Of a stretch of 64,000 nucleotides of DNA, positions 14,031-55,503 are shown in pieces (positions within the stretch are counted from its first letter, which is position 1; every line of letters starts with the position of its first letter). Under the pieces are notes generated by a model. That model did not search any database. It was not told the DNA's origin and was given only the letters and a program-made list of their open reading frames with translations. Source of the DNA: Hyphomicrobiaceae bacterium (GTDB taxonomy: Bacteria > Pseudomonadota > Alphaproteobacteria > Rhizobiales > Hyphomicrobiaceae). The stretch covers positions 124,001 to 188,000 of the forward strand of contig JAEUMD010000025.1 in the NCBI GenBank assembly GCA_016793635.1, in the 5' to 3' direction. Both the position numbers and the translations under genes were made by a program.

Positions 14031-14092
14031 TGTCACAGATCGGTCGACTTTTCGGTTTCGGCGAGAAATCGCAAGACGCAGGAGCTGCACGT

Positions 14093-35496: not shown

Positions 35497-35633
35497 TGTC
35501 CCCTCTCGACAGCGGTCGACTCTGGCCTGCGCCCATGAGCTCCGCAAATTTCGGATCGTGTGCCGCCCGGAACAGCGAGTTATCCCGCCCAACCCTAGGT
35601 TTGAGGCATGAACTTCAAACTGGAGTTAGGGCG

Positions 35634-36898: not shown

Positions 36899-37534
36899 AT
36901 GAACAAGACTTTGAACATCCTCGCCGCCGCCGCCACGCTGGTTCTGGCGAACGCTGCCAACGCGCCTGTCGCCGATGCCGGCGGTGTCCGCCTGCAGTTC
37001 GGCTTCCCGCTCGGCTCGTTCACGACCCGTCCGAGCGGCTACGGCGGCGGCGGATACAGCCACCATCGTGCACCGCGCTACGACGCCTACGCCGAGCATC
37101 GCCGCGCTGCCGCCCGCCGAGCTGCCATGGTGGCCGAGGCCAAGCGCGAAGCCGCTGCCAAGGCCCGCCGCGAGGCGATCGCGGAGGCCAAGCGCGACGC
37201 CCTGGCGGAGGCCCGCCGCGAGAAGCTCGCTGCCGAACGCGCCGAGGCCCGGCGTCTCGCCCGCGTCGAAGCGGACAAGGAGAAGACCACCGAGGTCGCG
37301 TCTGTCGAGACGGTGTCGCTCGCTCCCAACGCAGCGCCCGTTCCGGCCCGCCCGGACCTGGTGGAGACGTCAGTCGGGCAGCCGAAGACGACCGTGACCG
37401 AGCAGCCCGTGGCGACCGCGGAACCGGCGAAGCCGGCCAAGACAGCGAAGGCCGAGACTTCGAACCGGCCGCTCGATTGCAAGCGGTTCGTGCCGAGCGC
37501 GGGTCTCACCATCACGGTTCCCTGCGCGGAGTAA
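36899..37534 (+). CDS. Secreted Ala/Lys/Arg-rich protein of unknown function
   Basis: 211 residues. A signal peptide (LNILAAAATLVLANAANA) is followed by a Gly/Tyr/His segment (GYGGGGYSHHRAPRYDAYAE), then a highly charged helix of about 80 residues with an AEAKREA-like heptad (likely coiled coil), an Ala/Pro/Thr-rich linker, and a short conserved-looking tail DCKRFVPSAGLTITVPCAE with two Cys that could form a disulfide. Such tails occur in other Hyphomicrobiales proteins from memory. Probably periplasmic; function unknown. A GC hairpin at 37547-37580 follows. Confidence 0.75.
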   Translation: MNKTLNILAAAATLVLANAANAPVADAGGVRLQFGFPLGSFTTRPSGYGGGGYSHHRAPRYDAYAEHRRAAARRAAMVAEAKREAAAKARREAIAEAKRDALAEARREKLAAERAEARRLARVEADKEKTTEVASVETVSLAPNAAPVPARPDLVETSVGQPKTTVTEQPVATAEPAKPAKTAKAETSNRPLDCKRFVPSAGLTITVPCAE

Positions 37535-37822
37535 CAAGCGAAGGTCGCCGGCCGGAGTGGCACACGCCCCTCCGGCCGGTACCCTTTCCAGCCAGAACGT
37601 GGCTGCCGTCGGTAACGCTTACGCGCAGAATCGCCGCCGACATGCCGCGTACTTCCGTTCTGCGATTGATCTTCAAGCGTGATGCCGACATCCTGTGCCG
37701 CGTCAGTGCAACAGTGGTCGGCTGCGCAAGAGGTCGGCTCGCCAGGATTTCATCGATATGGGGCCCGCGTTGGCGGGTGTCCGCAGGGCATGTTCGCCAG
37801 CTCCGCGGCAGGAGACATCCAC

Positions 37823-39031
37823 ATGCAACTCACGCGCAGCACTTCGGGCGGCTCGGCCGCGTCAAGTCCGGCATCCGGCGCGCGCCGCAAGCTGCACATG
37901 GCGCCCAAGCTCGCCTATCGCAATCTCTTCTACGATCGCCTGAGCCTGATCGTCACGCTCACCGGCATCGTCTTCTCGGTGGTGCTCGTGGCGGTGCAGT
38001 GCGGTCTTTACATCGGTTCGGAGCGCACCATCGCCGCCGTGATCGACCAGACCGACGGCGACATCTGGATCGTACCGGTTGGCACCAAGAGCTTCGACGA
38101 CCCGTCGCTGCTCACCGGCCGCGAGCGTTTCAGCGCTTTGTCTGCGCCCGGCGTCGCGAGCGTCGAGAACATCATGGTCTCCTTCTCCTCTTGGCGGAAA
38201 CCGAAGGGCGGTGCGACGACCATCCTGCTCGTCGGCTCGGATTGGACCGGCGACGATCGCGCGCTGCGGCCTTGGAATCTGGTCGAAGGTACCCTCGAGG
38301 ATGTTCGCGCGCCCTCCGCCGTCGCCGCCGACCGGAGCTACTTCAAGGAGCTCGGCATCGACAAGATCGACGACACGGCCGAGATCAACGGCACCAAGGT
38401 GCGGGTGGCGGCGGTGACCAAGGGAATCCGCTCGTTCACGACACTCCCCTACGTGTTCACGACGCGGGAGCGGGCGCAGATGCTGATGGGCGCCTCCGCC
38501 GAGCAGTCGTCGTATACGCTGGTTCGGCTCGAACCCGGAGCCGATGCAAACAAGGTCCGCGAGGAACTCGCTCGCCGGCTGCCCGACGCGGAGGTTCTGA
38601 TGCGCGACGATTTCCGCCAGCGCAGCCTCGACTACTGGCTGTTCCAGACCGGCGCCGGCGCGGCGCTCATCGCTGGCGCTCTGCTCGGTCTCATCGTCGG
38701 CATCGTCATCGTCTCGCAGACCCTTTACTCGAGCACCAAGGATCACCTTGCTGAATTCGCCACGCTGCGCGCGCTCGGCGCGTCGGCCGGCTACATCATC
38801 CAGGTCATTCTGTTGCAGGCGGTCATCTCCGGCCTGATCGGCTACCTGGTCGGCATGCTGCTCAGCCTGCTCATACTGTGGGCCTCGCAGGACACGACGT
38901 TGAACATCGTCATGACGCCGGGCCTCGGGGTCGCGCTGTTCGGCATCACGCTCGGCATGTGCGTCATCGCCGCCATCTCGGCCATCTTCAAGGTCACTCG
39001 CATCGATCCCGCCGGAGTGTTCAGCCGATGA
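37823..39031 (+). CDS. ABC exporter permease (DevC/MacB-FtsX type)
   Basis: About 402 residues from ATG 37823, which has GGAG eight bases upstream; codons further upstream in frame add atypical residues. Topology is FtsX/MacB-like: one helix (LIVTLTGIVFSVVLVAV), a large periplasmic domain of about 200 residues, then three helices (AALIAGALLGLIVGIVIVSQ, VILLQAVISGLIGYLVGMLL and the last). ATPase and HlyD genes follow, giving the DevC-DevA-DevB set. Such exporters move glycolipids or other envelope material with TolC; no TolC gene is here. Confidence 0.87.
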   Translation: MQLTRSTSGGSAASSPASGARRKLHMAPKLAYRNLFYDRLSLIVTLTGIVFSVVLVAVQCGLYIGSERTIAAVIDQTDGDIWIVPVGTKSFDDPSLLTGRERFSALSAPGVASVENIMVSFSSWRKPKGGATTILLVGSDWTGDDRALRPWNLVEGTLEDVRAPSAVAADRSYFKELGIDKIDDTAEINGTKVRVAAVTKGIRSFTTLPYVFTTRERAQMLMGASAEQSSYTLVRLEPGADANKVREELARRLPDAEVLMRDDFRQRSLDYWLFQTGAGAALIAGALLGLIVGIVIVSQTLYSSTKDHLAEFATLRALGASAGYIIQVILLQAVISGLIGYLVGMLLSLLILWASQDTTLNIVMTPGLGVALFGITLGMCVIAAISAIFKVTRIDPAGVFSR

Positions 39032-39161
39032 GCAGTCGGGCGTATGCAACCAACACGTCCTTGCGCTCCAAGTGCCGCGAGGAACAGCCCGACACGGGCG
39101 AACGGGCGATAGCCAACTCACGCGGGTTGCTGCCGTCCACTCCGCACCAATGGAGCCAGTC

Positions 39162-39917
39162 ATGAGCAAGTCGACCAGAGATGCCGAAGGACGCGCCATC
39201 CTCGAGGCCCGGGGCATCACCAAGGTGTTCGGCTCGGGCGACATCGAGATCAAGGTTCTGAAGGGCGTCAACATGCAGCTTCGCGCCGGCGAGCTGACGC
39301 TTCTGATGGGCCCGTCGGGAAGCGGCAAGACGACGTTGCTGTCGATCCTCGGCTGCATTCTTTCGCCGACCGATGGAGAACTCGTCATCAACGGCAGCTC
39401 GACACGCGGGCTCAACGCGGAGGGACTGGCGGATCTGCGGCGCAAGCAAGTTGGCTTCGTGTTCCAGTCGTACAACCTGTTCCCGACGCTGACGGCGGTC
39501 GAAAACGTGTTGCTGGCGCTGGATGTGCGCGGCAGTGGCGCGGAGAACGCGCACGCCCAGGCCGAGGACGCATTGAAATCGGTCGGCCTCGCACACCGCA
39601 TTCACGCCTACCCGAAGAAGCTCTCGGGCGGCGAGAAGCAGCGCGTCGCCATCGCCCGCGCGCTTGCCGGTTCACCATCCGTCATTCTCGCGGACGAACC
39701 GACCGCCGCACTCGACAGTGAGAACGGCGCTGCCGTGATGGCGCTGCTTTCGGAAGTCGGGAAAGACCCGAATCGCGCCGTGCTTGCCGTCACCCACGAT
39801 CATCGCACGCTGTCCTACGCCGACCGCATCATCGTCATCGAGGATGGCCGCATCGTCGATAGTCGCCGCAACGACGGCGCCGCCAACGAAGGGAGTAAGT
39901 CGCATGCCGTCAATTGA
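39162..39917 (+). CDS. ABC exporter ATPase (DevA/MacB/LolD type)
   Basis: About 251 residues from ATG 39162 (GGAG six bases upstream; ATG 39150 possible). Walker A GPSGSGKTT, Q-loop VGFVFQSYNLFPTL, signature LSGGEKQRVAIARAL, Walker B VILADEPTAALDSENG and His switch AVTHDHRTLSYA. These match the LolD/MacB subfamily. The last 14 bases overlap the HlyD-type gene, so translation is coupled. Partner of the permease upstream. Confidence 0.93.
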   Translation: MSKSTRDAEGRAILEARGITKVFGSGDIEIKVLKGVNMQLRAGELTLLMGPSGSGKTTLLSILGCILSPTDGELVINGSSTRGLNAEGLADLRRKQVGFVFQSYNLFPTLTAVENVLLALDVRGSGAENAHAQAEDALKSVGLAHRIHAYPKKLSGGEKQRVAIARALAGSPSVILADEPTAALDSENGAAVMALLSEVGKDPNRAVLAVTHDHRTLSYADRIIVIEDGRIVDSRRNDGAANEGSKSHAVN

Positions 39918-40962
39918 GGTCCTTCGCGGGCTGCCCGGATCGCGCCGCATGGTCCGGGGTACGTGGTCGTATGGTCTCGGCGCGTTCGTGCTCGCCTTGA
40001 GCGGGATTGCATCCGTCGTCGTGCCGTCTCCTGCGGCAGCTCAGCAGCGGCAGAACTACGTCGCCGCGGCGCCGGGCAGGGTCGAGCCTATCCGCGGCGG
40101 CATCAACATCGGCGCTCCGCAAGTCGGCCGGGTCGCCGACGTGCTCGTCGGGGTCAACGACAAGGTCGAGGAAGGCGAATTGCTGATCCGTCTCGACGAC
40201 GCCGAATTCCGCGCCAAGCTTGCGGCCGCCGAAGCTGCGGCCGGCTCCGCCATGCGTGATCGCGACGCCGCCAACCTCTCCTCGTCGCGCTCGGATGTGC
40301 GCAAGGCCGAAGACGACGTGTACGATGCGGAACGTGCGATCACCGGTGCCCGCATCGATCTCGATGCCATGTTGAAAGCGCGCCGTTCGGGCGAGGCCAG
40401 CTCGCGCGATGTCGAAGATGCGCGCCGCCGCCTGACGGACGCAAACGCGCGCCTCTCTCGTGCGCGCACAGCGGTTGCGAAGGCGCAGAGCAAGTCCGGT
40501 CTCGCCGAGCCGAGTCGTTTCGAATCGGGTCTCAGCGCCGCGCGGGCCGAGGTCGCCATCGCCGATGCCCTGCTCGACAAGACACGCATCCGCGCTCCGA
40601 AGCTCGGCACAGTGCTCGAGATTCATCCGAAGGTCGGCGAGATCGTCGCTCCCGCACCGGAGGTGCCGATCGTCGTTACGGGGGATCTCACCAAGCTGCA
40701 GGTCAAGACCGAGGTCAGCGAGTCAGATATTTCACGCATCCGCATTGGCCAGAAGGCGTTCGTGAAGACGGGCGCGTTCCCAGGCCGCGAATTCAACGGC
40801 ACGGTGTCGGCCCTGGCGCCCACGCTCGCGGCGCCGAAGCTCGGCGCCCGCGGTCCGCGCCGGCCGACGGACGTGGACGTTCTCGAAGTGACGATCGAGA
40901 TCGACGGCGACACCCCACTGCTGCCCGGCATGCGCGTCGATGCCTTCTTCCGCGGGAGCTAG
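39904..40962 (+). CDS. HlyD/DevB-type membrane fusion protein
   Basis: 352 residues. N-terminal membrane anchor or signal (GLGAFVLALSGIASVVVP); first half of the lipoyl-like domain (PGRVEPIRGGINIGAPQVGR), a coiled-coil hairpin of about 100 residues (residues 90-200), second lipoyl half (TRIRAPKLGTVLEIHPKVGE), then a beta-barrel with VKTEVSESDISRIRIGQKAF. This is the periplasmic adaptor of a tripartite exporter. Last gene of the three-gene operon; the 75-bp tandem repeats start at its stop codon. Confidence 0.92.
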   Translation: MPSIEVLRGLPGSRRMVRGTWSYGLGAFVLALSGIASVVVPSPAAAQQRQNYVAAAPGRVEPIRGGINIGAPQVGRVADVLVGVNDKVEEGELLIRLDDAEFRAKLAAAEAAAGSAMRDRDAANLSSSRSDVRKAEDDVYDAERAITGARIDLDAMLKARRSGEASSRDVEDARRRLTDANARLSRARTAVAKAQSKSGLAEPSRFESGLSAARAEVAIADALLDKTRIRAPKLGTVLEIHPKVGEIVAPAPEVPIVVTGDLTKLQVKTEVSESDISRIRIGQKAFVKTGAFPGREFNGTVSALAPTLAAPKLGARGPRRPTDVDVLEVTIEIDGDTPLLPGMRVDAFFRGS

Positions 40963-41187
40963 GGTGCGATCGGTCGAGATGCGAGCGCGTAGTGCTCTTA
41001 TCGAGAGCGTGAATCGCACCCTGTGGATGTGACCGAAGGTGCGATCGGTCGAGATGCGGGCGCGTAGTGCTCTCATCGAGAGCGTGAAACGCTCCCTGCG
41101 ATCGTGAGAGAAGGTGCGATCGGTCGAGATGCGGGCGCGTAGTGCTCTCATCGAGAGCGTGAAACGCTCCCTGCGATCGTGAGAGAA
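40963..41187. repeat. Three tandem 75-bp repeats
   Basis: Units at 40963, 41038 and 41113, each 75 bp; units 2 and 3 are identical and unit 1 differs at about ten positions. A truncated fourth start (GGTGCG) lies at 41188. Each complete unit can form GCTCTC-ATC-GAGAGC or the overlapping GAGCGT-GAA-ACGCTC, which share bases and exclude each other. The region is outside genes. Confidence 0.95.
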
Positions 41188-41228
41188 GGTGCGCGGTCCC
41201 TTCCAACGGCCGCAATCGCATCCGCACA

Positions 41229-41272
41229 AAAAGCAACGTCCCGACGCTGGGGGGAGGCGCCGGGACGTTTCC
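41229..41272 (-). terminator. Terminator of the CX4C-protein gene
   Basis: On the minus strand AACGTCCCGGCGC and GCGTCGGGACGTT pair (one G-U), then GCTTTTTG. The G-U pair forms only on this strand, supporting minus-strand use. Confidence 0.8.
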
Positions 41273-41304
41273 GCATGCAGGGGGGCAGGGCAGGCGGGGC
41301 AAAC

Positions 41305-41910
41305 TCAGTGGCGGGTCGAGGCGATCGGTGGCGTCTGCTCTGCGGCTTGCAGGGCGGCGACGGCGGTTTCGAGCGCCGCCGAAATAGCTTCCACGGGAGC
41401 AGGGATCTGGCCGGTCGCCGCGGGTGCGCCCTTGCGCCAGAAGAGCTCGAACGCACGGGAGACCCCGGCGGCGGTCTCGCGGCAGCCGATGCCGTAGCAC
41501 TCGTAGGCATCGCGCTTGGCAGGCTCGCGGCGCATGCAGTCACCGATCCAGCAGGTTTCGTCTCCGAGCCAAAGCTGTTCGTGGGCATCGAGCAGGCGGA
41601 CATCGCGGGCCGCGCGGCATTCCGTCAAAGCGTTGAGCTCATCCGGCCAGGCGGGCGAACGCTCAGCGCCCGGCAGTGCGATAACGGCGCAGATGCGAAT
41701 GTTGGCAGCAGCGAGGTCGTGACTCAGCGCGGCGAGAGCGCGCACGACGGGGCTCTCGTGTGAGCGCACGACGAGGCGATAGGCGTAGGATTTTCCACCC
41801 GGGGCCACGGTGGCGATGCGGGCGATGTGCGCGGCAATGTGGTCCCTGAGCTGGGCTTCCTTCTCCTCCTTCTTGATGACGCGCATGGTCGGGGGAGTGG
41901 TGAAGCGCAT
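41305..41910 (-). CDS. Hypothetical protein with duplicated CX4C motif
   Basis: 201 residues, no signal peptide or membrane helix. A possible alpha/beta core at about 40-115 (SYAYRLVVRSHESPVVRALA, IRICAVIALPG, DVRLLDAHEQLWLGDE) precedes two similar motifs, Cys120-WIGD-Cys125-MRRE and Cys138-YGIG-Cys143-RETA, spaced as CX4C-X12-CX4C. This could bind metal or form disulfides. The C-terminal 45 residues are Ala-rich helix. A T-tailed terminator follows. No family is recognised. Its neighbour upstream on the same strand is the 943-residue membrane protein gene, 160 bp away, so an operon is possible. Confidence 0.7.
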   Translation of the reverse strand: MRFTTPPTMRVIKKEEKEAQLRDHIAAHIARIATVAPGGKSYAYRLVVRSHESPVVRALAALSHDLAAANIRICAVIALPGAERSPAWPDELNALTECRAARDVRLLDAHEQLWLGDETCWIGDCMRREPAKRDAYECYGIGCRETAAGVSRAFELFWRKGAPAATGQIPAPVEAISAALETAVAALQAAEQTPPIASTRH

Positions 41911-42074: not shown

Positions 42075-44906
42075 TCACTCCGCGGCGGTCGGCCGGAAGC
42101 GGCGCGAGATCGCATCGATCTCGATATCGATTTCCGGCTCGTCGAAGAGGGGAATGGTGTCGTCCTCCTCGTCGCCCGGGGTTTCGTCGAGCAGTGAAAA
42201 GGTGGTGATGGGTGCCGGAATTGCTGGCACCGAGGCCGGCGCCGGCGGCGAGGTCACGTTGGAAGGAAGAGTGGCGAGATCGAATGTCGCCGGCGCGGCT
42301 GTAACCGAGCTCTGGGTTTCTGCAACGCTCGACCCGAGCCCGGCAACGGCCAGCAGCGCTGACGGCAGAGTCGCCTCGCTTGCGGGGAGTGTGAACTCGG
42401 CCGTTTCGCGACGAAGGATGACGCCGACGCGAGGTTCGGCAGTGGTACCCGCGACGGCCGGGCCGGACACCTGAGACGTCACCTGGGACGTCCCTTGCGC
42501 GGAAGTGGCGGGCGACTGGCGAACGTGGCTGATGACCAACTCGGCACGGGGCGTCTCACGCTCGGCCGGGCGCGCAGGCTCGGCTGACGGGCTGGCCGCC
42601 TCCTGAGCACGTGTTGCGGACGTCGCTACACCGGACTCGCCGTTGCCCGGAATGGCGAACAGCACGACCTCGCCGGCAGGAATGTCGTCGCCACCGGCAC
42701 GATCCGGCGTCTCGCCCGAAGCGCGGCGGCGCGGGCGCGGACGGTCCAGGATGTCATCGTGGCCGCGCAGGGTCGGCAACGTCGAGCGGTAGTCCTCCTC
42801 GGCCATCTCGCGGGCCCGCCGCGCGGCATAGGGGCCGTACTCGTCGGCGGGTGCGGTCGAGGATGAGGTTGAGGGGGGCGACGCCTCCAGAACGGGAGTG
42901 GCGGGGCCACGGACGCCGCCGGCTTCGGCGACGCGGCGCGCGAAGAAGCCACGCCGTCCCGCGGTGCCCGTCATGCTGGCGACGTTACCCAACGGCTCGG
43001 CGTTCCCGATATCGAGATCCATCGCCGGCCGAGATTCCGCGCTGGCCGTGCGGGTGTTCGGCTCCTGTGCGGGCTGGGTGTGGTCGTTGGCCGCTTCCAG
43101 CGTTGGTTCCGGCTTCACCTCGGCGTTGAACAACTGATCCTCGAGCCGGCGCTTGCGCTTCTCCGCTTCGACCCGGCGGGCCGCGCCCATCACGGCGCCG
43201 AGAATGATCTCGGACCACGCACCGTCGCGGAAGCGGTAGACGCGGAACGCTTCGGCATGGGCGAACTTACTGCCCTGCCGATGCAACTTCTTCTTGATGG
43301 ATCGTGTGGTGAGGAGCGGCGAGTAAACGCGCGTGAAGATCTTCTCCTGCTCGAAAGAGGTAAACAGGTTCGCTAGCAGGTGTGCCTCGAGCTGGAGGTC
43401 CTGGATGTCCTCGGTCGAATAGCTCTTGGTGTAGGGGCCACTCGGCTTGTACGGCGCGTCGAGCGGAACGGCGACGTAGTAGGCGCCATGGAAGTCGAAC
43501 ACGACGTGACGGAACACCTCGAAGTTCTTACGGATCTCGTCGTCGCGGTGAATGTCGTTGAAGCGCGACAGGATCTGAATGACGGGGCCGCGCTCTGCTG
43601 CGCGCATCTTCGGCACGAGGCCGTGCAGGCGATTGATCGGCCGGCTCATCGACACGAGCAGCAGGCAGAGATCGACGAAAAGTGCGATGGCCAGCGGGAT
43701 GTAGTCACGCTTGGAAAGTCCGACCGCGCCATCGGCGGAGGCGAGCGCCTTCTGCGTTGAAGGTGATGCCTCGACGGACTGAACGGCCTTCTTCTGTAAA
43801 TCGCGCAGCTCATCGGCAGACGGCGGCATCTTGAACGAGAGCATGCCGTAGAACGTCGCGGTCAGACGGCGAAAGGCCTCGATCGTCGCCTCCGAGCCCT
43901 CGACGGCCGCGATCTTCGGCTTCTCGAGCTCGGGAAGCTGATCGATGGCGCGCACGACGCCCTTCAGCGCCTGCTGCAATTGCGCGTCGGGGCAGGTGAA
44001 TGTGCCCTTCTGGCTGTCGGGGAAAACCGTGCGGTCGGCACGCTCGGCGAGGTCGGCGCGCAGTTGCTTCAACTGCGGATCCGTGCGGAAGGCGTTGAAG
44101 CCGGTGACAGTCATGTCCAGCTTGCGGCCGAGCGCGCGCATGAACTCGTTACGTGTGCCGGACTTCTCGTCGACCGTCGACTTGTCGTCGCTGGCGATCT
44201 TGCCGAGATCCACATCGAGGGCGCTGAGATCACCCTTGACCGTGCCGACGCGTGCTTTCACGAACTCGGCGGCGAAGCCAAAGCGCTGGGCATCCTCGTC
44301 GCGAAGCTTGCGGCGCGGGCCGTCGCCCGGACGGCTGTTCGGACACGAAGAGCCCTTCGTGCGCTCGAGCTCGGCTTTGGCGAGCGAGATCTGGTTCAAC
44401 TGGTCGAGCGTCGTGGAGAGCTGCGACATGCGCGTCGATGCGGCGTGCAGAGAGGCCTGCACTTGCGATACGGCCGACTCGGCCGACCGCGCGCTCTCGG
44501 AGCGGCTTTCGAGAACCTTCCAGTAGAAGCCGAAGCCGAAGCCGACCGAGATGATAGTGAGGAACGCGTAGCCGGCGATGAACGTGAGGCGCTGCAGAAA
44601 GCCGATGGGAGCGAAGATTTGATCGAGAAGCCAGATGATCATCGTCATCAGCATGGCGACAGAGAAGCCGATGATCGCCTTGTGCAGCAGCGGCAGGTCA
44701 CCCATGTTGGCCTCGATCAGCTCGAGCATACCGACATAAGTCGCGACCCACGAGAGCACGCCGAGACCGAAGACGAGAACGAGCTTCTTCCAATCGCGCC
44801 CGGGACGCTCCTCCTCGCCCCATTCGCCATCGGCGAGATCGACGTCGTAACCGCGCGCGGAAGCGCCGGCGGTGCGGGTGGTATTTGCGTCGCGCGTGAA
44901 CGCCAT
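42075..44906 (-). CDS. Large coiled-coil membrane protein of unknown function
   Basis: 943 residues. Three predicted helices at about 42-60, 77-96 and 104-128 are followed by a 270-residue hydrophilic segment with coiled coil (SAVSQVQASLHAASTRMSQL onward) and two Cys (188 and 305), a fourth helix at 402-420 (YIPLAIALFVDLCLLLVSM), a folded basic domain to about 600 (with FHGAYYVAVPLDAPYKPSGP), and a 340-residue disordered Ala/Pro/Glu tail. An even helix count puts the coiled-coil segment on one side of the membrane, probably outside, and the tail inside. The topology vaguely recalls DUF4407-type proteins, but I cannot assign a family. It is downstream of an atypical PBP on the same strand. Confidence 0.75.
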   Translation of the reverse strand: MAFTRDANTTRTAGASARGYDVDLADGEWGEEERPGRDWKKLVLVFGLGVLSWVATYVGMLELIEANMGDLPLLHKAIIGFSVAMLMTMIIWLLDQIFAPIGFLQRLTFIAGYAFLTIISVGFGFGFYWKVLESRSESARSAESAVSQVQASLHAASTRMSQLSTTLDQLNQISLAKAELERTKGSSCPNSRPGDGPRRKLRDEDAQRFGFAAEFVKARVGTVKGDLSALDVDLGKIASDDKSTVDEKSGTRNEFMRALGRKLDMTVTGFNAFRTDPQLKQLRADLAERADRTVFPDSQKGTFTCPDAQLQQALKGVVRAIDQLPELEKPKIAAVEGSEATIEAFRRLTATFYGMLSFKMPPSADELRDLQKKAVQSVEASPSTQKALASADGAVGLSKRDYIPLAIALFVDLCLLLVSMSRPINRLHGLVPKMRAAERGPVIQILSRFNDIHRDDEIRKNFEVFRHVVFDFHGAYYVAVPLDAPYKPSGPYTKSYSTEDIQDLQLEAHLLANLFTSFEQEKIFTRVYSPLLTTRSIKKKLHRQGSKFAHAEAFRVYRFRDGAWSEIILGAVMGAARRVEAEKRKRRLEDQLFNAEVKPEPTLEAANDHTQPAQEPNTRTASAESRPAMDLDIGNAEPLGNVASMTGTAGRRGFFARRVAEAGGVRGPATPVLEASPPSTSSSTAPADEYGPYAARRAREMAEEDYRSTLPTLRGHDDILDRPRPRRRASGETPDRAGGDDIPAGEVVLFAIPGNGESGVATSATRAQEAASPSAEPARPAERETPRAELVISHVRQSPATSAQGTSQVTSQVSGPAVAGTTAEPRVGVILRRETAEFTLPASEATLPSALLAVAGLGSSVAETQSSVTAAPATFDLATLPSNVTSPPAPASVPAIPAPITTFSLLDETPGDEEDDTIPLFDEPEIDIEIDAISRRFRPTAAE

Positions 44907-45229
44907 GGGACGACCTGCTTTGCTTGTGAATGCAGAGCGCGCTGATCCGTTTGCACGCCACGGCGTCTGGCCGGGGAGATACGTCCGGTGGGGCTCGCTC
45001 GTCGCTTCGACCCGACCGCAATCCGGACGGGCCCTATGTCGTCAGAGGTAGGCTCGTCTCTTGGCGGCAGTACGGCGCGTATGTGGCTCCGCGGGGCTTC
45101 AACGTGGCGGAAAGACGCGCCGTAGATGAAGGAGAGATGAACGGCGAAATGACCTCGACCAGTGCGAAGACACGCCATTCGAACGCGCGGGGCGTGCGGC
45201 GCCACTCGCGCATATAGGCGTACGCTCGT
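44907..45229. other. Intergenic region between coiled-coil protein and PBP genes
   Basis: About 320 bp, presumably the promoter region of the coiled-coil protein gene. No further feature is recognised. Confidence 0.45.
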
Positions 45230-47716
45230 CTATTGGCGCAGCAGGCTTTGCAGGACCATGTCGCTTGGCGTTTCGCGGCCACGACTGGCAGTGTTCGCGG
45301 GCGTGCCTTGCGCGACGGGAGCAACGGCTGGCAGCAACGAGGGTTCGGGGTTGGCCTTGGCGTGCTTCTCGAGATCGGCCAGCAGTGTTTCGACCAGTGG
45401 GGCGACATCGGCGGCGTGGATCGCGCGGCCGAACGGCTGTGTCGGCGAGCCGGTGCCGACGAGAACTACATACGAGTAGGCGGCGCCGTTCGTGAATTGC
45501 AGACCGCCTGTAATCCACGTGTCGATGCTGGCATCGGGGTCGGCATTCACTTGCGTGCCTGTCTTGGCGAAGTGCAGGCGCAGTCCGGGATGGCGCGCGG
45601 CACACCAGTGCGCGAGGCTCTTGAGCGTGCCGTGTGAGGTGTTGTTGGCGCTGTAGCAGAGCGGCGCCTCGAGAAGAGCCTTGACGAGCTGGCCTGCGCC
45701 GCGGTTGACGACGAGGCGAGGTGAAACGCTGTGGGGCCGGGCGAAATCATTGAGGCGAGCAGAATCGCCATCGATAAAATCGAAGCTCTTGACCAATGTC
45801 GGCTCGCCGACGGGCTTGGCGCTCTGGCCGGTGAGCGCGGCGAGCACCACCGCCGACATCTGATGCACGCGCCGTGGCGAACCCGCGATCTGGCCCATAA
45901 CAGCGGCTGTCGATGGCGGCGTGCCTTCGCCATTGGCGTCGCGCGGAGGCATGGTGAATCCGAAGCGGTCGATCAGGGCCTTGATGCGGGCTTGACCGAC
46001 GCGCGCCGTTCGCCCGATCAGGGCCGTGTTGAGTGAGCAAGCGAAAGCGACGATCGCCTTACGTCCATGGCGACCGCCGCCGCCGCGACGGCACGTCTCG
46101 AGCCCCGACGGCGGTGCATCCGTGTCGAGGTAGAGCGACGAAATCGTGTCCGTGTGCTGGTTGGCGATGCCGATGGCGGCGATCATCTTTCCGGTCGAAG
46201 CGATCATGCGGGATTCGCGCGCGGTGTTGTAGAATCCGGTCTCGGCGCTGCGAGCCTGCTGCGAACCGAAGTACGGTGCCGTCTCCCCCGATTCGAAATA
46301 GCGGACGATCTCGCCCCTCGCGTTCGCCGCGACGACGACGACATTCGGCATCTCGCCAGAGGCACCGGCTTTTGCGGGAGCGAGCGTGTAGCCGGGGCCG
46401 AGCTTACCGGCGAGCTTCGCATCGAGCGATGTGAGGGTAGCGCCCACGGCGCTATGGAACGCGAGGTTCTCCGGCACGTCGAACGTCGTCGTTACGCCAC
46501 GCACATAGTCGCGCCAGCCGAAGCCGAAGCGTTGCTTCATCTCTTCCCGCAGTCCGAAGCGAGCCGCCGGCATCAGCACGTTGGCGCGGATGGTGGGGTT
46601 TGCCTGTGCGCGGCGAGATTGTTCCGGGGCGAATGTCTCGAGCGCCTTCTGAAGCCGCGGCCTCACATGCGGGTCGGGCGGTCCGCTGGCGAGCTGCACG
46701 AGCTCGAATACCACCTGCTTTTGCTGCTCGGGGTCGGCGATCAACTTCTCCGCGCAAGTGCGTGCACGCACCTCCGTGATGTACCGCCAGCGGTCGAGGC
46801 GCACTTCGTTCAACCGTTCGCTGCCTTCGAGCAGGATGATCGGCTTGTTGACGGCTGACGCGAGCACGAACTGCTCGGCCATCGAAAGGTCCTGCGCCTC
46901 CTTGCCGAAGACGATGCGGCTCGTCACCTCGACGCCATGCAGCGGCGATCCGCCGGTGCGCTGGGCCAACCAGAGATGGTTGGCCGCCCACTGGCGAAGC
47001 TTGGTGTCGTCGCCCCCGGCTGTCAGCGAACGATAGATGACGGGCGCTTCCCACCATTCGGAAAGCTTGCGGCCGAGTTTCGTGAAACCGCCTTCCGATG
47101 CGCTCGGCGGCGTCTTGCGGATGACACGGGCAAGCTGCATCGGCAGGGTCGATCCGCCGACGCCAAGGCGCGGGCGGCGCGAGGCGATCGATTGCTTGAC
47201 GGTCGTATAGGGGATCTTGAGAACGCCGAGCAGATCGATGCCGAACGGGTTCAGCGGACCGCCGAGGTTGCGGTCCTCGTGGTAGACGAGGCAACTCCAG
47301 TAGTGTTCCGGAACGTCGCGCACGGGGATCGACTTGTGGTCCGGGTTCGCGACGTAATCCCCATGCTCGATCACGGCGTCGGTGAAGTTGACATCGCGCT
47401 GGCTGTCGAGGCGCGGATCGAATGTGCCGACGAAGCTGCCGCGCGTATCGTAGATGGCGGTGGCGAGCCAGCGCTCGGCATCGTAATGCAGCTTCTCCGA
47501 TGTGTAGGCAGCGCCGACGATCCCGCGTAGCGGAGCGACGACATAGACCAGCATCACGGCAAAGAGCACGTAAACGACGGCGGCGGTGACGACGTGGCGC
47601 AGGGGGCCGAGCCGCGGATTGAACGCGACGAGATCGATCAGAACGCGCACCGCACGCGCTGGAACCGCGACGATGATCTCGATGAGGCGCGTGAAAAGGC
47701 GGACAAGGGCGATCAT
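45230..47716 (-). CDS. Atypical bifunctional penicillin-binding protein (class A-like)
   Basis: 828 residues if started at ATG 47716 (MIALVRLFTRLIEII); the frame is open 48 codons further, and no strong ribosome site marks either start. Membrane anchor near 43-62. The GT51 glycosyltransferase domain has catalytic Glu147 in HEDRN and GGSTLPMQLARVI, but the first motif reads EDRNLGGPLNPFGID, three residues longer than the usual EDxxFxxHxGxD spacing. The transpeptidase domain is complete: STGK (Ser507), SLN (561-563) and KTG (718-720). Likely peptidoglycan synthesis in the periplasm, possibly specialised. Neighbours: moeA upstream and the large coiled-coil membrane protein downstream. Confidence 0.82.
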   Translation of the reverse strand: MIALVRLFTRLIEIIVAVPARAVRVLIDLVAFNPRLGPLRHVVTAAVVYVLFAVMLVYVVAPLRGIVGAAYTSEKLHYDAERWLATAIYDTRGSFVGTFDPRLDSQRDVNFTDAVIEHGDYVANPDHKSIPVRDVPEHYWSCLVYHEDRNLGGPLNPFGIDLLGVLKIPYTTVKQSIASRRPRLGVGGSTLPMQLARVIRKTPPSASEGGFTKLGRKLSEWWEAPVIYRSLTAGGDDTKLRQWAANHLWLAQRTGGSPLHGVEVTSRIVFGKEAQDLSMAEQFVLASAVNKPIILLEGSERLNEVRLDRWRYITEVRARTCAEKLIADPEQQKQVVFELVQLASGPPDPHVRPRLQKALETFAPEQSRRAQANPTIRANVLMPAARFGLREEMKQRFGFGWRDYVRGVTTTFDVPENLAFHSAVGATLTSLDAKLAGKLGPGYTLAPAKAGASGEMPNVVVVAANARGEIVRYFESGETAPYFGSQQARSAETGFYNTARESRMIASTGKMIAAIGIANQHTDTISSLYLDTDAPPSGLETCRRGGGGRHGRKAIVAFACSLNTALIGRTARVGQARIKALIDRFGFTMPPRDANGEGTPPSTAAVMGQIAGSPRRVHQMSAVVLAALTGQSAKPVGEPTLVKSFDFIDGDSARLNDFARPHSVSPRLVVNRGAGQLVKALLEAPLCYSANNTSHGTLKSLAHWCAARHPGLRLHFAKTGTQVNADPDASIDTWITGGLQFTNGAAYSYVVLVGTGSPTQPFGRAIHAADVAPLVETLLADLEKHAKANPEPSLLPAVAPVAQGTPANTASRGRETPSDMVLQSLLRQ

Positions 47717-47895
47717 GGCGTTCGCATGCGAGGGCGGCAACACCCCGGCGCACGACGCCAACTTAGCGAGGCGCACACGAGAGGACTGCCCGAGCAGTAG
47801 TCGGCCAATGTGGCGGCCGCCGGTCACGTTCGTGTCGAGACGGCGGTTCTGTTCGGGCAATTCGCTGCCCGCCCGCGCGTTTCAGGCCCGCGCGA

Positions 47896-49832: not shown

Positions 49833-49925
49833 TCACATCGCATTCAGGAGAACAAAGAGCCCGATACCGATTGCCGGCCCCAATAAAGCGGCCAGCAGCA
49901 TCACCATGAATGGCTTCGCGACCAT
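49833..49925 (-). CDS. Candidate 30-residue single-helix membrane protein
   Basis: ATG at 49925 to TGA gives 30 residues: a short polar start (MVAKPF), a continuous hydrophobic run of about 20 residues including MLLAALLGPAIGIGLFVLL, and the end NAM. The composition is that of small membrane proteins such as respiratory or transporter accessory peptides. The upstream GCGGGGTT is only a weak ribosome site. No known family can be claimed. Confidence 0.35.
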   Translation of the reverse strand: MVAKPFMVMLLAALLGPAIGIGLFVLLNAM

Positions 49926-50434: not shown

Positions 50435-53400
50435 TCATTTGATATCGAACAAGCGCAACTGCTTCTCGTCCTGACCGCGCGTCTCGGAGGCGAGCTGCTC
50501 GATGCGGTCGAACGGAACCTGCTCTGCGAGCACGAGCGAGCGCTGCGCCTTCATCGATCGCACGAGGCCCTCTTGAACGAGGTGGAACTCGCCAACCGTC
50601 TGGTGCGGTAGCACGGCTGCGGGGTCCAGGCCGCTCTCGCTCTGGAACGCGGCCTTGAGCTTGCGCAGCGCGGTGTCCTCGCGGACGCGGCCGATGAACC
50701 AGCTCGTGATCTGGTCACGGCTCTTGTAGTCCAGGTCACCCGGCGACTGCGTCGCCAGCATAATGCCGAGACCGGCTGAGCGGGCGCGCTTCAAGAGACT
50801 TTGCAGCGGCTCTGCCGTCGCTGGCTTGGAGTTCGCCGGGATATACAGGTCGGCCTCGTCGAACATCACGACAGCCTGCAACTCGTCGTTCGGGTTGCGC
50901 TGGCAGAAGCGGAGCGCTTCCGAAAGGAACTGCGACACCCAGAATAGGATGTTTTCGTTGTCGCCAAGGAACCCCGTGTAGATGATCGAAAGCCGGGTGC
51001 GGCCCTCCCGCGCGTGTGGGCCAAGTCCGAGGAAGCTCTCCATCGAAAGGCTCTCGCCGCCGCCATCGAACAGCGCGGCGTTACGGTGACGCAACGAGTC
51101 GAGCTGGGCGACGAGGTCGCGGCGCAGCTTGCCCGAAGGGTCCATGCGCTGCGTCAGGTCGGTGAGCTCGGGATCCTCGTCCTCGAGCAGATCGATGAGG
51201 TCGGAAAGCGTGACCTCGCGGCTGTGGCGTGAGCCGAGGATGCGCAGAGCCACCGACAGCGTACCCGACTGCTTCTGATGCGTCGCCGAGTTCTTGAGGT
51301 GAAGCATGTCGCCGAGCGCCGCGGCCGACAGGTTCGCCAGAAGCTGCTGCTCGTGGTCCGGCAGCTCGTTGATGCCGTTCGGCAGAAGCGTAATGGAGAT
51401 CGGCCGCCCCGAGGCGCGGCCCGGCGTGTAGACGGCGACGTCGATAGCATCGGCGAGGCGCTCGCGCTCGGCGCGTCGCTCGGCCGTCTCGTTATCGTCG
51501 GCGCGCCAGACCTCGGGGTTGGCGTAGCTGCACAGGTCGCCCTTGCGGTCGAGCAGGATCGCAGGGATGCCGCGCTGGAGCAGTTGCTCGATAAGCGAGA
51601 GGGCGAGCGTGGTCTTGCCCGAACCCGAGCCGCCGAGCACGGCCGCGTGGCGTTTCAAAACGCTGGGGTTGAGGGTGACCGGGCGATTGCGGTTGCCGAT
51701 CTCGCGGCCGGCGAAGATGCTCTTCGCGCCGCCGCCATGCTCGTCGAGGATGACCGAGAGCGGCAGCTCGTCGTTGTTGGGATCGTTGGGATCGTCGACC
51801 GCGGGAACGTTGACGGCAGCGTCGGCCAGGCCGGTGAATTCCATAGCAGGGATGGTAGCGGTGGTGACGTCCGCAGGATCGGCGACGATCTGTGCGGCTC
51901 CCACCTCCGGCTCGGCAGGACGCGGCATCGTGCGGCCCGTCCGCCCGTCCGCGCCGCCATTGATCACGCGCGGCAGCAATTTGCCGAGCAGGTCGAGGCG
52001 CAGCAGTTGGATGATGACGATCAGGTTCGACAGCAGCTTCGCGTCGGCGAACCACTTGCCGAAGCCCGGATCGTTGCGATGGTGCGCGTGGAACTCGCGC
52101 ACCGCGATCATCCGCTCCCACTCCGCGATCGGTACCGTCAATGCCCGCCCGCCCGCCTCGCGGAACTTGCGCATGGATTGCGCGGCCTGGCTCTTGGTGT
52201 TCGGCGGATAGTCCGAAGCACGCAGGATGAAACAGCTCTTGGCGCCGAGGTTCAGGAGTGCGGTGTCGAGCTGGCGCTTGAATGCTCCGCCCTGGATCTT
52301 GCGGTTGCAGAGGAACACGCGGGCCTCGGTGGCGAGGCCGTTACGCTGGCGAATGGTGAGGTCCATCGCCGGCAGGTCGTCGGCTATGTCGAGCCGCGTC
52401 GTGCTCACCTCGACCGTGCCGGCCCACTCGCTTTCGGCAAGCTTCACGGCGAATGCGAGAATGTCGGTCAGCTCGTTGTCGTCGGACGGGATCTCGGCTT
52501 CCGAAGCATTGTGGAAGCGTTCCCACATTTCACGATAGTCGGGCTCGAGCAGCGGAGCAGGTGCGAGTTTCGGCTCGCTGCGCTCGGTCGACATTCCGAG
52601 CACAGATGAAAGCGTAGATAGCCAGGACGCGCCGGGCTTCTCCGCCCGCGGCGCAGCCTGCGCCTCGTCCTCCGGATCTTCCGCCTGAATGCGCAGACGG
52701 CTCTGAGCGTGCTCGAGCAGCCGCCGCGTCGAAAGGCCGGAAAACTCCTCGAAGAACTGCGGACCGAAGTAAGCCGATGGATCGGAGTAGACGACGGCGC
52801 CTGGTGTGCGTGCGGCTTCGTGGCCGAGGCGCTTGGCGATGATGAGGCGCGCTTCCTCGGCGGTACGGCTCTCGTACAGAGGCACCGGACCCGCCTTCTC
52901 GATGCGATCCCGGTAGGACTGCGCCAGCGGCTCGCGTACCTGCGCATAGAAATCGTCGAGGCAGGAGATGACGACGATGGCCGTCGGCACGCGATTGGCG
53001 ATCTGAATGAGGTCGCGCACCGCCTTCTGGAAGCGCTCCTCGGCGTCGTCGAAGAAACGCAGGTCCTCGACCTGATCGATGCAGAAGACGAGCGCGGCGC
53101 CATCGACCGCCCACATCAGCCGGCCGAGGCCCTCGATGATGTCGAAGGCGCGACCGTCGCCGACATTCGGGTCGAGCGCGGCAACGCTCTGCAAAGAAAG
53201 CTCGTTCAGCGGCCTGCATTGCAGGTATTGGCGCACGCGGCTCTCGACGCGCGGGTCGCGCCGCTCGAGATAGAGCAGCGCGCGAATGATGTTGATGTCG
53301 ATGTTGTCTTCGGCGAAGCGCGGCGCGGCGACGATGGTGTCCGCCAGCTCGTGCACCAGGCGGGCGAGCTGTTTGTCGTCGAGCGTCGCCTCGCGCAGCT

Positions 53401-53947
53401 TCTCGATATCCGATGCCGGGATCATGTCGGCGGCGGCGACGAGACGCGCGGTGAGGCGAGCGAGGCCGCTCTCGCCGGCGATGTCGGGATCGTAGGGCCG
53501 TTCGAGAGAAGCGATCAGACGGCGCAGGTAGTAATCGGCGTAATTGGCGATGTCGGGCGACATCTGCGCGTAGCCGAGATAACCCTTCCCGGTGCGGTGT
53601 GTCCCCGTGCGCAGTGCCCGAATGAGGTGCGTCTTGCCGGCGCCGGACTGGCCATGGAACAGCAGGATGCGTGATTGCGTGGCGGGGCCCCCGGCGCGGC
53701 TGGCGGTAACGCCGTCGAGCAGGTCGAAGTACTTGCGCCGCGCCTTCTGGTGCACCTCCTCCACATCGACCGGGTCGGCGCGCCAAATGTCGTCCTCCCA
53801 GGTGATCGAATGCTCGAAAGCCTTCGACACCTGGTCGGGAAGCGCAGCCTTATGAGCCGGTTGGTGCATCGAATCGGGGTCCTTGAACTTGCATTCGGCG
53901 GTTTTTGATCGGCTGCGCATGTCGCTGCCCGGGCCGCCGTTGGCCAT
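50435..53947 (-). CDS. Double-ATPase protein: AAA/STAND-like NTPase plus HerA-like ATPase
   Basis: 1170 residues, no signal peptide. N-terminal ATPase: Walker A GQSGAGKTH (99-107), Walker B ALVFCIDQVEDL (285-296), VPTAIVVISCLDDFY sensor-like strand (320-334), and a helical region to about 420, the layout of AAA+/STAND switches. Middle domain about 490-615 (EVSTTRLDIADDLPAMDLTI; EARVFLCNRKIQGGAFKRQL; FILRASDYPP) could be nuclease-like, but no catalytic set is certain. C-terminal HerA/FtsK-type motor: Walker A GGSGSGKTT (772-780), DRKGD, Walker B AVVMFDEADLYIP (1025-1037), RSAGLGIMLATQSPGDLD. It lies 57 bp downstream of the winged-helix-like gene. A defence or DNA-processing role is inferred only from the architecture. 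Confidence 0.8.
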   Translation of the reverse strand: MANGGPGSDMRSRSKTAECKFKDPDSMHQPAHKAALPDQVSKAFEHSITWEDDIWRADPVDVEEVHQKARRKYFDLLDGVTASRAGGPATQSRILLFHGQSGAGKTHLIRALRTGTHRTGKGYLGYAQMSPDIANYADYYLRRLIASLERPYDPDIAGESGLARLTARLVAAADMIPASDIEKLREATLDDKQLARLVHELADTIVAAPRFAEDNIDINIIRALLYLERRDPRVESRVRQYLQCRPLNELSLQSVAALDPNVGDGRAFDIIEGLGRLMWAVDGAALVFCIDQVEDLRFFDDAEERFQKAVRDLIQIANRVPTAIVVISCLDDFYAQVREPLAQSYRDRIEKAGPVPLYESRTAEEARLIIAKRLGHEAARTPGAVVYSDPSAYFGPQFFEEFSGLSTRRLLEHAQSRLRIQAEDPEDEAQAAPRAEKPGASWLSTLSSVLGMSTERSEPKLAPAPLLEPDYREMWERFHNASEAEIPSDDNELTDILAFAVKLAESEWAGTVEVSTTRLDIADDLPAMDLTIRQRNGLATEARVFLCNRKIQGGAFKRQLDTALLNLGAKSCFILRASDYPPNTKSQAAQSMRKFREAGGRALTVPIAEWERMIAVREFHAHHRNDPGFGKWFADAKLLSNLIVIIQLLRLDLLGKLLPRVINGGADGRTGRTMPRPAEPEVGAAQIVADPADVTTATIPAMEFTGLADAAVNVPAVDDPNDPNNDELPLSVILDEHGGGAKSIFAGREIGNRNRPVTLNPSVLKRHAAVLGGSGSGKTTLALSLIEQLLQRGIPAILLDRKGDLCSYANPEVWRADDNETAERRAERERLADAIDVAVYTPGRASGRPISITLLPNGINELPDHEQQLLANLSAAALGDMLHLKNSATHQKQSGTLSVALRILGSRHSREVTLSDLIDLLEDEDPELTDLTQRMDPSGKLRRDLVAQLDSLRHRNAALFDGGGESLSMESFLGLGPHAREGRTRLSIIYTGFLGDNENILFWVSQFLSEALRFCQRNPNDELQAVVMFDEADLYIPANSKPATAEPLQSLLKRARSAGLGIMLATQSPGDLDYKSRDQITSWFIGRVREDTALRKLKAAFQSESGLDPAAVLPHQTVGEFHLVQEGLVRSMKAQRSLVLAEQVPFDRIEQLASETRGQDEKQLRLFDIK

Positions 53948-54004
53948 TTTCCGAACTTGAAGCAGGGAAGAGAAGCGCGGGCAGAGCCCAGCTTTTCCGG
54001 CCCC

Positions 54005-55222
54005 CTAGTCTTCGATCCGGACGTAATGCCAAACGGTGTTCATGTAGCTGATGGCGGAGTCCTGTATGTCTTTGATGTTACCCTTGTTTCTGAGATCGGC
54101 TCCCGTCAGCGCAAGGCGACCTGCCCGGTGCGCCTCCACCAGCATGCACTTGAACTCGATCTCGGAAAGTCCCCACTCGGGCCGCGAATCTCGAATCGAC
54201 GGCCATACGTGAGAGATAAACGCCTTGCGGTTTCCTGGCCAGCCCTCGGCGGTGCCGGCGGCGGCGCGCAGCACCTCGAGTGTGAATGTTTCGAGGTCCG
54301 GGCGGTAACTCGGCAACGGGGGGGCCGCCGGCGTGGGGTCGTTGTCCGGCACCGGAACGGCGTTTCGCGGCCCGGACGCATTCTTCGCCTCGGGGGCGGG
54401 GGCGGAACGCGGTGCGCGCCGCGCGGCAGTTGTGGGCGCAACACCAGCCGCCGGCGCCTCGCCGCCGATGATTTCACTGACAAAGCGACGGAGGATGGCG
54501 GCTCGCAGTACGTCGAGCGTCGGTTGAACGGCATCGACGTGCTCGGCGGCAAGGGCGGCGATCAGCTTGCTGTCGGACGAGAATTCGCGCGGGCGGCGCG
54601 AGAGCTGCGCGGCGAGCATGCGGCCGGCCTTGGGCGAGAAGCCGCCATTGGCGCCGAGGCCCGACTTGAGCTTGTTGCCGAAGGCTCTCTCGAGCGCGAT
54701 CACGGCGAGCTCCGTCCGGAGGCGGGCTGGTGACGTCTTGAGTCGGCGCGGCATGCCGAATGCCTTCTGGACGATCAAGGCGCGCAGCCCTTCAGGCGTC
54801 GAAAGGGCTTTGAGTTTGGGCGCGGTTTCGCCGTCGAGGCCGAGTGCGCGGGCGATGAGCAACGTGTCTCGAACGTCGGGCCACGCGCCGATGCGCTGGG
54901 TCGCGCGCAGGAGCAAGTAGCGCGCGGCAGTGGCGGAGCCGGCTTCGGTCGCCTCGTATCGGCCGCGCTTCTCGTTTGCGAGGCCGTCGGCGAGGAGCGA
55001 CGCCAGAGCTAACTCCGCGGTTTGCCGCCATTCGCCGGGTGAGAGGCGGTGGGCGACGAGCTGTCCGAGGTCGCGCAGGACTTCGGCGCGTGTCGCGCCC
55101 CCCTCGGCGGAGATGCGCACGAGCACCAAGTCACGGAGCACGGTTGGCTGAGGAGAAGTGGCACGCCCGCCGGTGTCGCCGTCCGGCACCTTTTCGGATC
55201 TGCTCGTCGTCAAGGCCGCCAT
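54005..55222 (-). CDS. Winged-helix-like partner protein of the double ATPase
   Basis: About 405 residues from ATG at 55222 (GGGGAG about ten bases upstream). Residues 25-105 look like a winged helix (TVLRDLVLVRISAEGGATRA, AELALASLLADGLANEKRGR, YEATEAGSATAARYLLL). The middle is helical and basic (residues 130-265); a Pro/Ala linker follows. The C-terminal 85 residues form a second compact domain with NRKAFISHVW, EFKCMLVEAHRAGRLALTGA and the ending SYMNTVWHYVRIED. I have a memory of similar C-terminal domains in bacterial conflict-system proteins but cannot name the family. First gene of a two-gene unit with the double ATPase. Confidence 0.72.
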   Translation of the reverse strand: MAALTTSRSEKVPDGDTGGRATSPQPTVLRDLVLVRISAEGGATRAEVLRDLGQLVAHRLSPGEWRQTAELALASLLADGLANEKRGRYEATEAGSATAARYLLLRATQRIGAWPDVRDTLLIARALGLDGETAPKLKALSTPEGLRALIVQKAFGMPRRLKTSPARLRTELAVIALERAFGNKLKSGLGANGGFSPKAGRMLAAQLSRRPREFSSDSKLIAALAAEHVDAVQPTLDVLRAAILRRFVSEIIGGEAPAAGVAPTTAARRAPRSAPAPEAKNASGPRNAVPVPDNDPTPAAPPLPSYRPDLETFTLEVLRAAAGTAEGWPGNRKAFISHVWPSIRDSRPEWGLSEIEFKCMLVEAHRAGRLALTGADLRNKGNIKDIQDSAISYMNTVWHYVRIED

Positions 55223-55503
55223 GCCTTCTGCTCTCCCCTCGTGTGGGACCATGCACCGCGCCGCTTGCGCACAACGGGTGATCGACCCTCGAGAGCGCTA
55301 TCTAAGCGTCTTCGTCCAACCGCATATCGCTTGCGGCGATGCCGTGCGGGCAGATGGAGTGCTTGACCGTGCGCTCGATTTAGCCGCCGAGACTTCGAAT
55401 CACGGCGAGCACTGCGGCGGAGTTTGGAGAAACCACGGGAGGGTGGAAAGGGCCGCCACCGGGCGTGGGGGCGGTTCTCCCGGCTTTTTCCTCCCCGCGC
55501 GCG

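What the first reader, a model, noticed from the sequence alone, without database searches (positions are those of the whole stretch)
50435..55222. Two-gene module: winged-helix-like protein plus AAA/STAND and HerA double ATPase
Seen: a 405-residue protein with a winged-helix-like N-terminus and a compact C-terminal domain, 57 bp upstream of a 1170-residue protein with two separate P-loop ATPases (Walker A at 99-107 and 772-780), the second HerA/FtsK-like, separated by an alpha/beta domain of unknown role. It is bordered on one side by a 1.2-kb gene-poor, lower-GC region with palindromes. Known: HerA-type motors with switch ATPases, nucleases and HTH proteins occur in several anti-phage and DNA-processing systems. 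Inference: this could be an uncharacterised defence or plasmid/phage DNA-sensing module. I do not recognise a named system.
Basis: partly seen in the sequence, partly recalled or inferred. Interest (0 to 1): 0.75.

Follow-up and report, generated by a model that had tools for sequence, protein, structure and literature searches.

The report
Resident DNA-motor pair with tiny neighbour
A two-gene, probably DNA-moving module in Hyphomicrobium-type bacteria looks like a nuclease-free, permanently resident cousin of operons that resemble anti-virus systems, and a conserved gene for a 30-residue membrane peptide sits beside it, which makes it a testable cell machine rather than a typical defence island.

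Summary
The pair does not behave like a defence-island element: single-copy, found in 34 of 36 genomes of its family plus some sister families, mostly at a shared chromosomal address, under strong purifying selection, beside ordinary neighbours. Its closest outside relatives found are patchy three-gene operons (DUF559 endonuclease, small protein, AAA-HerA motor); six of six intact ones carry the nuclease, while the pair shows none nearby and its genome has no DUF559. The architecture resembles the published 'HerA/FtsK capture' class minus the active nuclease. The 'gene-poor' stretch holds a conserved 30-aa, single-span microprotein gene (49833-49925, minus), seen in 57 of 80 related loci, always on HERA's strand; window and nearest relative differ at 10 of its codons, all synonymously. 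Best explanation: a core, membrane-linked DNA translocase sharing ancestry with nuclease-armed capture operons. No function was measured; resident immunity with another effector is the main rival.

The parts
50435..53947 (-). HERA, 1170 aa: probable Orc/Cdc6-like AAA domain, alpha/beta middle domain, HerA-class translocase domain
53627..53653 (-). N-terminal Walker A (residues 99-107, GQSGAGKTH); the matching Walker B reads DQ instead of DE
   Evidence: DQ in 31 of 31 rows
52079..52480 (-). middle alpha/beta domain (residues about 490-623), candidate inactive restriction-endonuclease fold
   Evidence: order of elements; no ExK/QxK after Asp529; fold not confirmed by any search
51608..51634 (-). 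HerA-domain Walker A (residues 772-780, GGSGSGKTT)
54005..55222 (-). P405, 405 aa (upstream start at 55252 gives 415 aa): winged-helix-like N-terminus, helical middle, conserved C-terminal domain of about 100 aa
49833..49925 (-). conserved 30-aa single-span microprotein gene, 509 nt after the HERA stop codon
49932..49939 (-). TGCGGGGT, RBS-like motif before the microprotein start
   Evidence: (GCGGGGT in 50 of 59, CGGGGT in 53 of 59)

Best explanation
HERA and P405 are the core of a resident, vertically inherited DNA-translocating machine of the Hyphomicrobiaceae and some sister families. P405 binds DNA through winged-helix domains (inferred). The N-terminal Orc/Cdc6-like AAA domain, whose Walker B is DQ, acts as an ATP-binding loader or switch (inferred). 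The HerA domain assembles as a ring and pumps double-stranded DNA (inferred from the HerA family). The 30-aa microprotein anchors or regulates the motor at the inner membrane (inferred from its constant place beside HERA and its single hydrophobic span). The machine shares ancestry with nuclease-armed operons of the 'HerA/FtsK capture' type but works without their DUF559 nuclease, so its output is most likely DNA handling (segregation, clearing or positioning of chromosome or plasmid DNA) rather than cleavage. Shown: pairing, near-universal presence in the family, shared address, no DUF559 nuclease nearby, homology to the three-gene motor, conservation of the microprotein. Not shown: any biochemical activity, membrane location or DNA substrate.
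For: P405 in 34 of 36 family genomes; the own genome has one HERA plus one weak 22% match. P405 kept beside HERA in 67 of 67 loci with enough upstream sequence. Address: a CAP lipoprotein gene upstream in 50 of 58 loci with enough flank and in 5 of 5 sister-family loci. Purifying selection: HERA dN/dS 0.043 against L025 and 0.127 against L024, lowest of five genes compared each time. Colinear homology to the three-gene motor (982 columns, E 4e-52). DUF559 nuclease beside 6 of 6 intact three-gene motors and in none of the 80 pair loci (flanks up to 10 kb, often less); no DUF559 in the own genome. The two clades separate with SH-aLRT 100 each. A separate FtsK exists. Microprotein: 57 of 80 loci, all on HERA's strand; in 23 whole genomes 12 matches, 11 of them on the contig and strand of P405, and none in the 8 genomes without P405; 10 of 10 codon differences between window and L025 synonymous.
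Against: No function was measured. The HERA model is moderate (mean pLDDT 69.8; 1056-1154 below 50) and one PDB match reached E 0.001. P405 shows no convincing homology to the small protein of the three-gene operons (hhalign probability 17%, N-terminal part only). The microprotein is undetected in 18 of 73 loci with 1 kb of downstream sequence (one of these, L046, holds a diverged 30-aa candidate), in 3 of the 15 P405-bearing genomes among the 23 searched and in 4 of 5 sister-family loci, with a weak match in the fifth, so it cannot be strictly required. In the window and L025 the usual upstream neighbours are replaced by PBP1C and A2M. Two family genomes gave no P405 match (G011, G019). The decayed motor in G478 shows no nuclease match in the 12 kb fetched. 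The tree is unrooted, so loss of the nuclease is not shown.
Confidence: 0.5

Rival explanations
1. A fixed, lineage-wide anti-invader system: HERA-P405 senses or captures phage or plasmid DNA and triggers an effector other than DUF559, for instance a host nuclease or the membrane microprotein as an abortive-infection effector.
For: Architecture resembles the Orc/CDC6-coupled HerA/FtsK capture class (PMC10853773, sections 22 and 26 read); best PADLOC match mad8, 3e-20; P405 evolves faster than HERA (33-69% against 52-81% identity to the window protein).
Against: Near-universal in the family, shared address, strong constraint; 0 of 10 conserved-neighbour representatives match PADLOC; no match to HERA in phages or viral contigs.
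Confidence: 0.33
2. Remnant of a capture system that lost its nuclease and is kept only by drift or linkage.
For: No DUF559 nuclease nearby; the middle domain lacks nuclease motifs; a decayed relative of the motor exists in G478 (2 stops).
Against: dN/dS 0.04-0.14 for both genes and intact Walker motifs in 24 of 24 rows of the pair clade.
Confidence: 0.04
3. The microprotein is an unrelated gene that merely sits next to HERA, for instance a small subunit of another membrane complex (this rival concerns the third component only and is not exclusive of the others).
For: 194-625 nt gap with its own RBS-like motif; absent from some pair-bearing lineages.
Against: One match per genome and beside the pair in 11 of 12, none in 8 genomes without P405; kept before different downstream genes (TGLY 26, MoeA 19, P201 1, other or none within 3 kb 11, of 57).
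Confidence: 0.4

Closest known systems
Orc/CDC6-coupled HerA/FtsK capture systems (Rakesh, Aravind, Krishnan 2024, PMC10853773)
   Same: AAA domain, alpha/beta domain at the place of the inactive REase, HerA motor, probable winged-helix partner
   Different: no active endonuclease found, not in a mobile setting, near-universal in one family at a shared address, a transmembrane microprotein gene beside it
DUF559 - small protein - AAA/HerA three-gene operon (L164, L165, L166, L167, L175, L206)
   Same: motor homologous over 982 columns
   Different: has a DUF559 nuclease; patchy; shares none of the pair's ten profiled neighbour families except an A2M-like match in L206
MADS Mad8 (PADLOC)
   Same: HerA domain, E 3e-20
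   Different: the only other MADS model to match was mad3, on HERA itself at E 0.006; 4 window proteins scanned
BREX BrxC/BrxD
   Same: N-terminal AAA (Foldseek 9zll, BrxC; weak BrxD HMM)
   Different: HerA C-terminus; no PglZ or methyltransferase among 19 window proteins scanned with Pfam
FtsK
   Same: HerA/FtsK superfamily motor
   Different: the FtsK_gamma match lies elsewhere in the genome

Membership tests
Orc/CDC6-coupled HerA/FtsK capture system | HerA/FtsK translocase domain | tested here: met
   DUF87 5e-13, HerA_C 1e-11, over their cut-offs; Walker A invariant
Orc/CDC6-coupled HerA/FtsK capture system | Orc/CDC6-family AAA ATPase | tested here: inconclusive
   Foldseek BrxC E 9e-4, Cdc6/Orc1 2qby E 9e-3; AAA_22/AAA_16
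Orc/CDC6-coupled HerA/FtsK capture system | inactive REase after the AAA core | tested here: inconclusive
   helix, three strands, helix, strand at 490-576; no conserved catalytic motif; no domain-level fold search was run
Orc/CDC6-coupled HerA/FtsK capture system | active endonuclease in the operon | tested here: not met
   no relative of the DUF559 nucleases in 80 loci or the window, no DUF559 in the own genome; other nuclease families not searched exhaustively, but none among the conserved neighbours identified
Orc/CDC6-coupled HerA/FtsK capture system | wHTH protein in the operon | tested here: inconclusive
   P405 adjacent in 67 of 67; winged-helix-like order of elements in its model, Foldseek hits to PadR, IdeR and MukF none at E 0.001
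Orc/CDC6-coupled HerA/FtsK capture system | mobile gene neighbourhood | tested here: not met
   shared chromosomal address; no phage or viral-contig match for HERA
FtsK | FtsK_gamma domain | tested here: not met
   the one match in the genome lies on contig C16, not in HERA
BREX | PglZ and PglX/BrxX partners | tested here: inconclusive
   not among 19 window proteins scanned with Pfam; rest of the genome not tested
MADS | mad1-mad7 partners | not tested
   4 window proteins scanned with PADLOC; no search of the genome

The most novel reading that the evidence does not exclude
A core membrane-tethered, non-FtsK DNA translocase: HERA, P405 and the 30-aa microprotein form one machine in which the nuclease output of a capture-type system has been replaced by a membrane peptide, used by these budding, often hyphal bacteria to move or clear DNA at the membrane.
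Probability: 0.2. Interest if true: 0.85.

Novelty: new variant of a known kind. Interest (0 to 1): 0.6.

Why it matters
An architecture so far described as mobile anti-invader machinery lives here as a constrained, near-universal gene pair of one bacterial family, next to a conserved transmembrane microprotein gene. That gives a concrete, testable case of traffic between immunity and housekeeping DNA motors, and a candidate second DNA translocase in budding Alphaproteobacteria.

Tried and rejected
Defence-island reading: rejected as first choice on distribution, address, neighbours and constraint. FtsK: rejected. Rfam RNA in the gap: none. ParA lost from the gap: a ParA-like gene lies convergent next to HERA in L169-L171, but tblastn gave no ParA match in the window, so loss is not shown. 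TGLY-P943 as part of the module: they follow HERA in many loci but not in others, so left out. P405 as the counterpart of the small protein of the three-gene operon: not established. PDB sequence searches gave one HerA-domain helicase for HERA (8wiv, E 2.5e-7) and nothing for P405. A budding-specific role could not be tested.

Print searches: 15 of 117 listed; 10 of 26; 2 of 2; 2 of 2; none; 10 of 225; none; 1 of 1; 8 of 8. I saw these as listings only, except PMC10853773 (outline, sections 22 and 26, one passage) and PMC12839542 (passages, section 16). In the listed entries I saw none that names this pair or the microprotein; unlisted entries and supplements were not seen.

I also lowered the winged-helix and BREX membership rows to inconclusive.
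Full report
Observation. HERA runs 50435-53947 (-), 1170 aa. P405 runs 54005-55222 (-), or from 55252 with the longer start. The gap is 57 bp. Both Walker A motifs are invariant in the 37 aligned sequences. Pfam sees AAA_22/AAA_16 and HerA domains. PADLOC's best match is Mad8 of the MADS system, 3e-20, within the HerA domain. P405 has no match over a cut-off (one Pfam match, HVO_A0261_N, E 0.0055, below its cut-off).

Structure. The AlphaFold model of P405 is good (mean pLDDT 85.5): a winged-helix-like N-terminus, a helical middle, a disordered linker and a compact C-terminal domain. Foldseek matches are weak, none at E 0.001: MukF, JetABC, PadR, IdeR and others. HERA's model is moderate (mean pLDDT 69.8) and poor in the last part of the HerA domain. 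Its matches include the BrxC N-terminal region, HerA, Cdc6/Orc1, TrwB and Sir2/HerA; only the first reaches E 0.001. The middle domain has the order helix, three strands, helix, strand. In the 31 aligned proteins it has no ExK or QxK after the Asp529 of the pair, so if it is a nuclease fold it is probably inactive. The N-terminal Walker B reads DQ instead of DE in 31 of 31 rows, which would fit slow or absent hydrolysis (general AAA knowledge, recalled).

Distribution. P405 occurs in 34 of 36 genomes of the window's family (own included) and in 4 of 24 genomes of other families of the order. In an order-wide sample it is found in 26 of 249 genomes (one of these, G796, weakly). HERA matches 28 of 249 at 1e-20, of which two (G623, G493) are the three-gene relatives described below. 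The HERA/P405 type falls in ten families of the order. Class sample: 1 of 289, the own genome. Phylum samples: 2 of 299 for P405; 4 of 299 for HERA, including one three-gene relative and one HerA-only match. No match to HERA in phages or viral contigs (a pattern-based scan). Three plasmid-collection records match HERA in part; they are of the three-gene type.

Inheritance. Of the 80 loci fetched, 74 show P405 next to HERA on the same strand and the other 6 begin at or inside HERA; all 67 with at least 1.5 kb upstream have it. A CAP lipoprotein gene lies upstream on the opposite strand in 50 of 58 with enough flank, a polysaccharide-flippase-like gene in 20 of 51; downstream, TGLY in 32 of 58 and MoeA in 14 of 59 (identities by Pfam). 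The five sister-family loci L169-L173 have the CAP gene (5 of 5), a D-Ala-D-Ala carboxypeptidase gene (4 of 5; the contig of the fifth is short) and the flippase-like gene (3 of 5). The six three-gene loci show none of these ten profiled families apart from an A2M-like match in L206. In the window and L025 the upstream side differs (PBP1C, A2M). Ten neighbour representatives, each from a family in 5 or more loci, had no PADLOC match; 20 families reach 5 loci, P405 and HERA included. HERA's dN/dS against L025 is 0.043 and against L024 0.127; P405 0.099 and 0.142; three neighbours 0.066-0.122 and 0.174-0.223.

Relatives with a nuclease. Three-gene operons were found in G623 (L167), G493 (L166) and G636 (L206), and in three records of the plasmid collection: Methylobacterium aquaticum pMaq22A_1p (L164), Nonomuraea (L165, an 11.85-Mb record, probably a chromosome) and Tsukamurella (L175, where the record annotates DUF559, hypothetical and DUF87 genes). 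Gene one is a DUF559 endonuclease (Pfam 4e-10 and 4.5e-13 in L167 and L164; annotated in L175; the rest by homology), with Glu241, Asp276, Glu287 and Asp289 invariant in five aligned. Gene two encodes 223-235 aa in the five aligned. Gene three is AAA-middle-HerA, 36-74% identical to that of L164 and homologous to HERA over 982 columns at E 4e-52. Nuclease and small protein lie beside the motor in 6 of 6. A decayed motor lies in G478 with two stops, without a nuclease match in the 12 kb fetched. The operon is patchy: 3 of 249 order genomes plus the decayed copy, no three-gene match among 279 class genomes at 1e-40 (two candidates scored per genome), none in phages or viral contigs. On the tree (quick method, LG+G4, no bootstrap) the pair (24 rows) and the three-gene set (6 rows) are each one side of a branch with SH-aLRT 100. 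G796 carries a third, very divergent motor with a P405-like gene and no nuclease match; its branch is too long to place. Because the root is unknown, loss of the nuclease in the pair is an inference.

Comparison with print. Rakesh, Aravind and Krishnan 2024 (PMC10853773, sections 22 and 26 read) describe neighbourhoods with an Orc/CDC6 ATPase, an inactive REase, an active REase, a HerA/FtsK motor and a wHTH, and propose that they intercept invader DNA. The pair resembles that class except for the active REase and the mobile setting. The main text does not hold the word DUF559; its supplements were not read.

The microprotein. blastn of the 1.2-kb gap against the 80 loci showed one stretch of about 100 nt conserved well beyond the nearest relative, in 14 loci. 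It holds an ORF of 30 codons, window 49833-49925 (-), MVAKPFMVMLLAALLGPAIGIGLFVLLNAM, with GCGGGGT before the start in 50 of 59 (58 of 59 are 30 aa, one is 31). It is found in 57 of 80 loci, all on HERA's strand, 194-625 nt after HERA; among loci with 1 kb downstream, 55 of 73. L046 has a diverged 30-aa candidate. Pro17 and Gly22 are invariant in the alignment. Differences fall mostly on third codon positions (18679, 8007 and 29361 at positions 1, 2, 3 over all pairs of 57; pN/pS 0.41), and window against L025 shows 10 codon differences, all synonymous. In 23 whole genomes it matched 12, once each: 10 strong matches and one weak one (G005) lie downstream of P405 on the same contig and strand; the twelfth (G006) is weak and on another contig. 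There is no match in the 8 genomes without P405, and none in 3 with P405 (G008, G036, G043). A weak match lies between HERA and MoeA in sister-family locus L170 (E 0.006); the other four sister-family loci gave none. No Pfam match over a cut-off in 4 members (best E 0.025) and no convincing NCBIfam match in 20 (best E 0.073). The gap is therefore not empty, and the peptide is the best candidate for a third component. Whether it is made is untested.

Verdict. I favour a core DNA-translocating machine with a membrane link (0.5) over resident immunity with a different effector (0.33). Function is untested, and the budding-cell idea is a proposal only.

Noticed in passing
window 49833-49925 (-): Conserved 30-aa single-span microprotein gene in the supposedly gene-poor stretch, without a Pfam or NCBIfam match over a cut-off.
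   Followed up: yes
L169:6390-7295, L170:13393-14532, L171 about 13807-14649: ParA/MipZ-like gene convergent with and directly beside HERA in three sister-family loci; no such match in the window.
   Followed up: partly
L175:6272-11240: The three-gene DUF559 operon in Tsukamurella sits beside a PIN/VapB pair between ribosomal-protein genes.
   Followed up: no
window 42075-47860 (-): A 943-aa protein without a Pfam match follows a divergent PBP-like transglycosylase; both recur together downstream of HERA in many loci.
   Followed up: partly
window 35595-41910 (-): Four listed ORFs (374, 579, 238, 201 aa) without a Pfam match at E 0.01; not shown to be genes, except that the 201-aa one is conserved in many loci.
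   Followed up: no
L032, L046, L052: Records titled Devosia equisanguinis carry the Hyphomicrobiaceae-type locus; L032 groups inside that clade in the tree, so the titles may be wrong.
   Followed up: no
L168:7909-12133: Very divergent P405-like plus AAA-HerA pair without a nuclease match in G796.
   Followed up: partly
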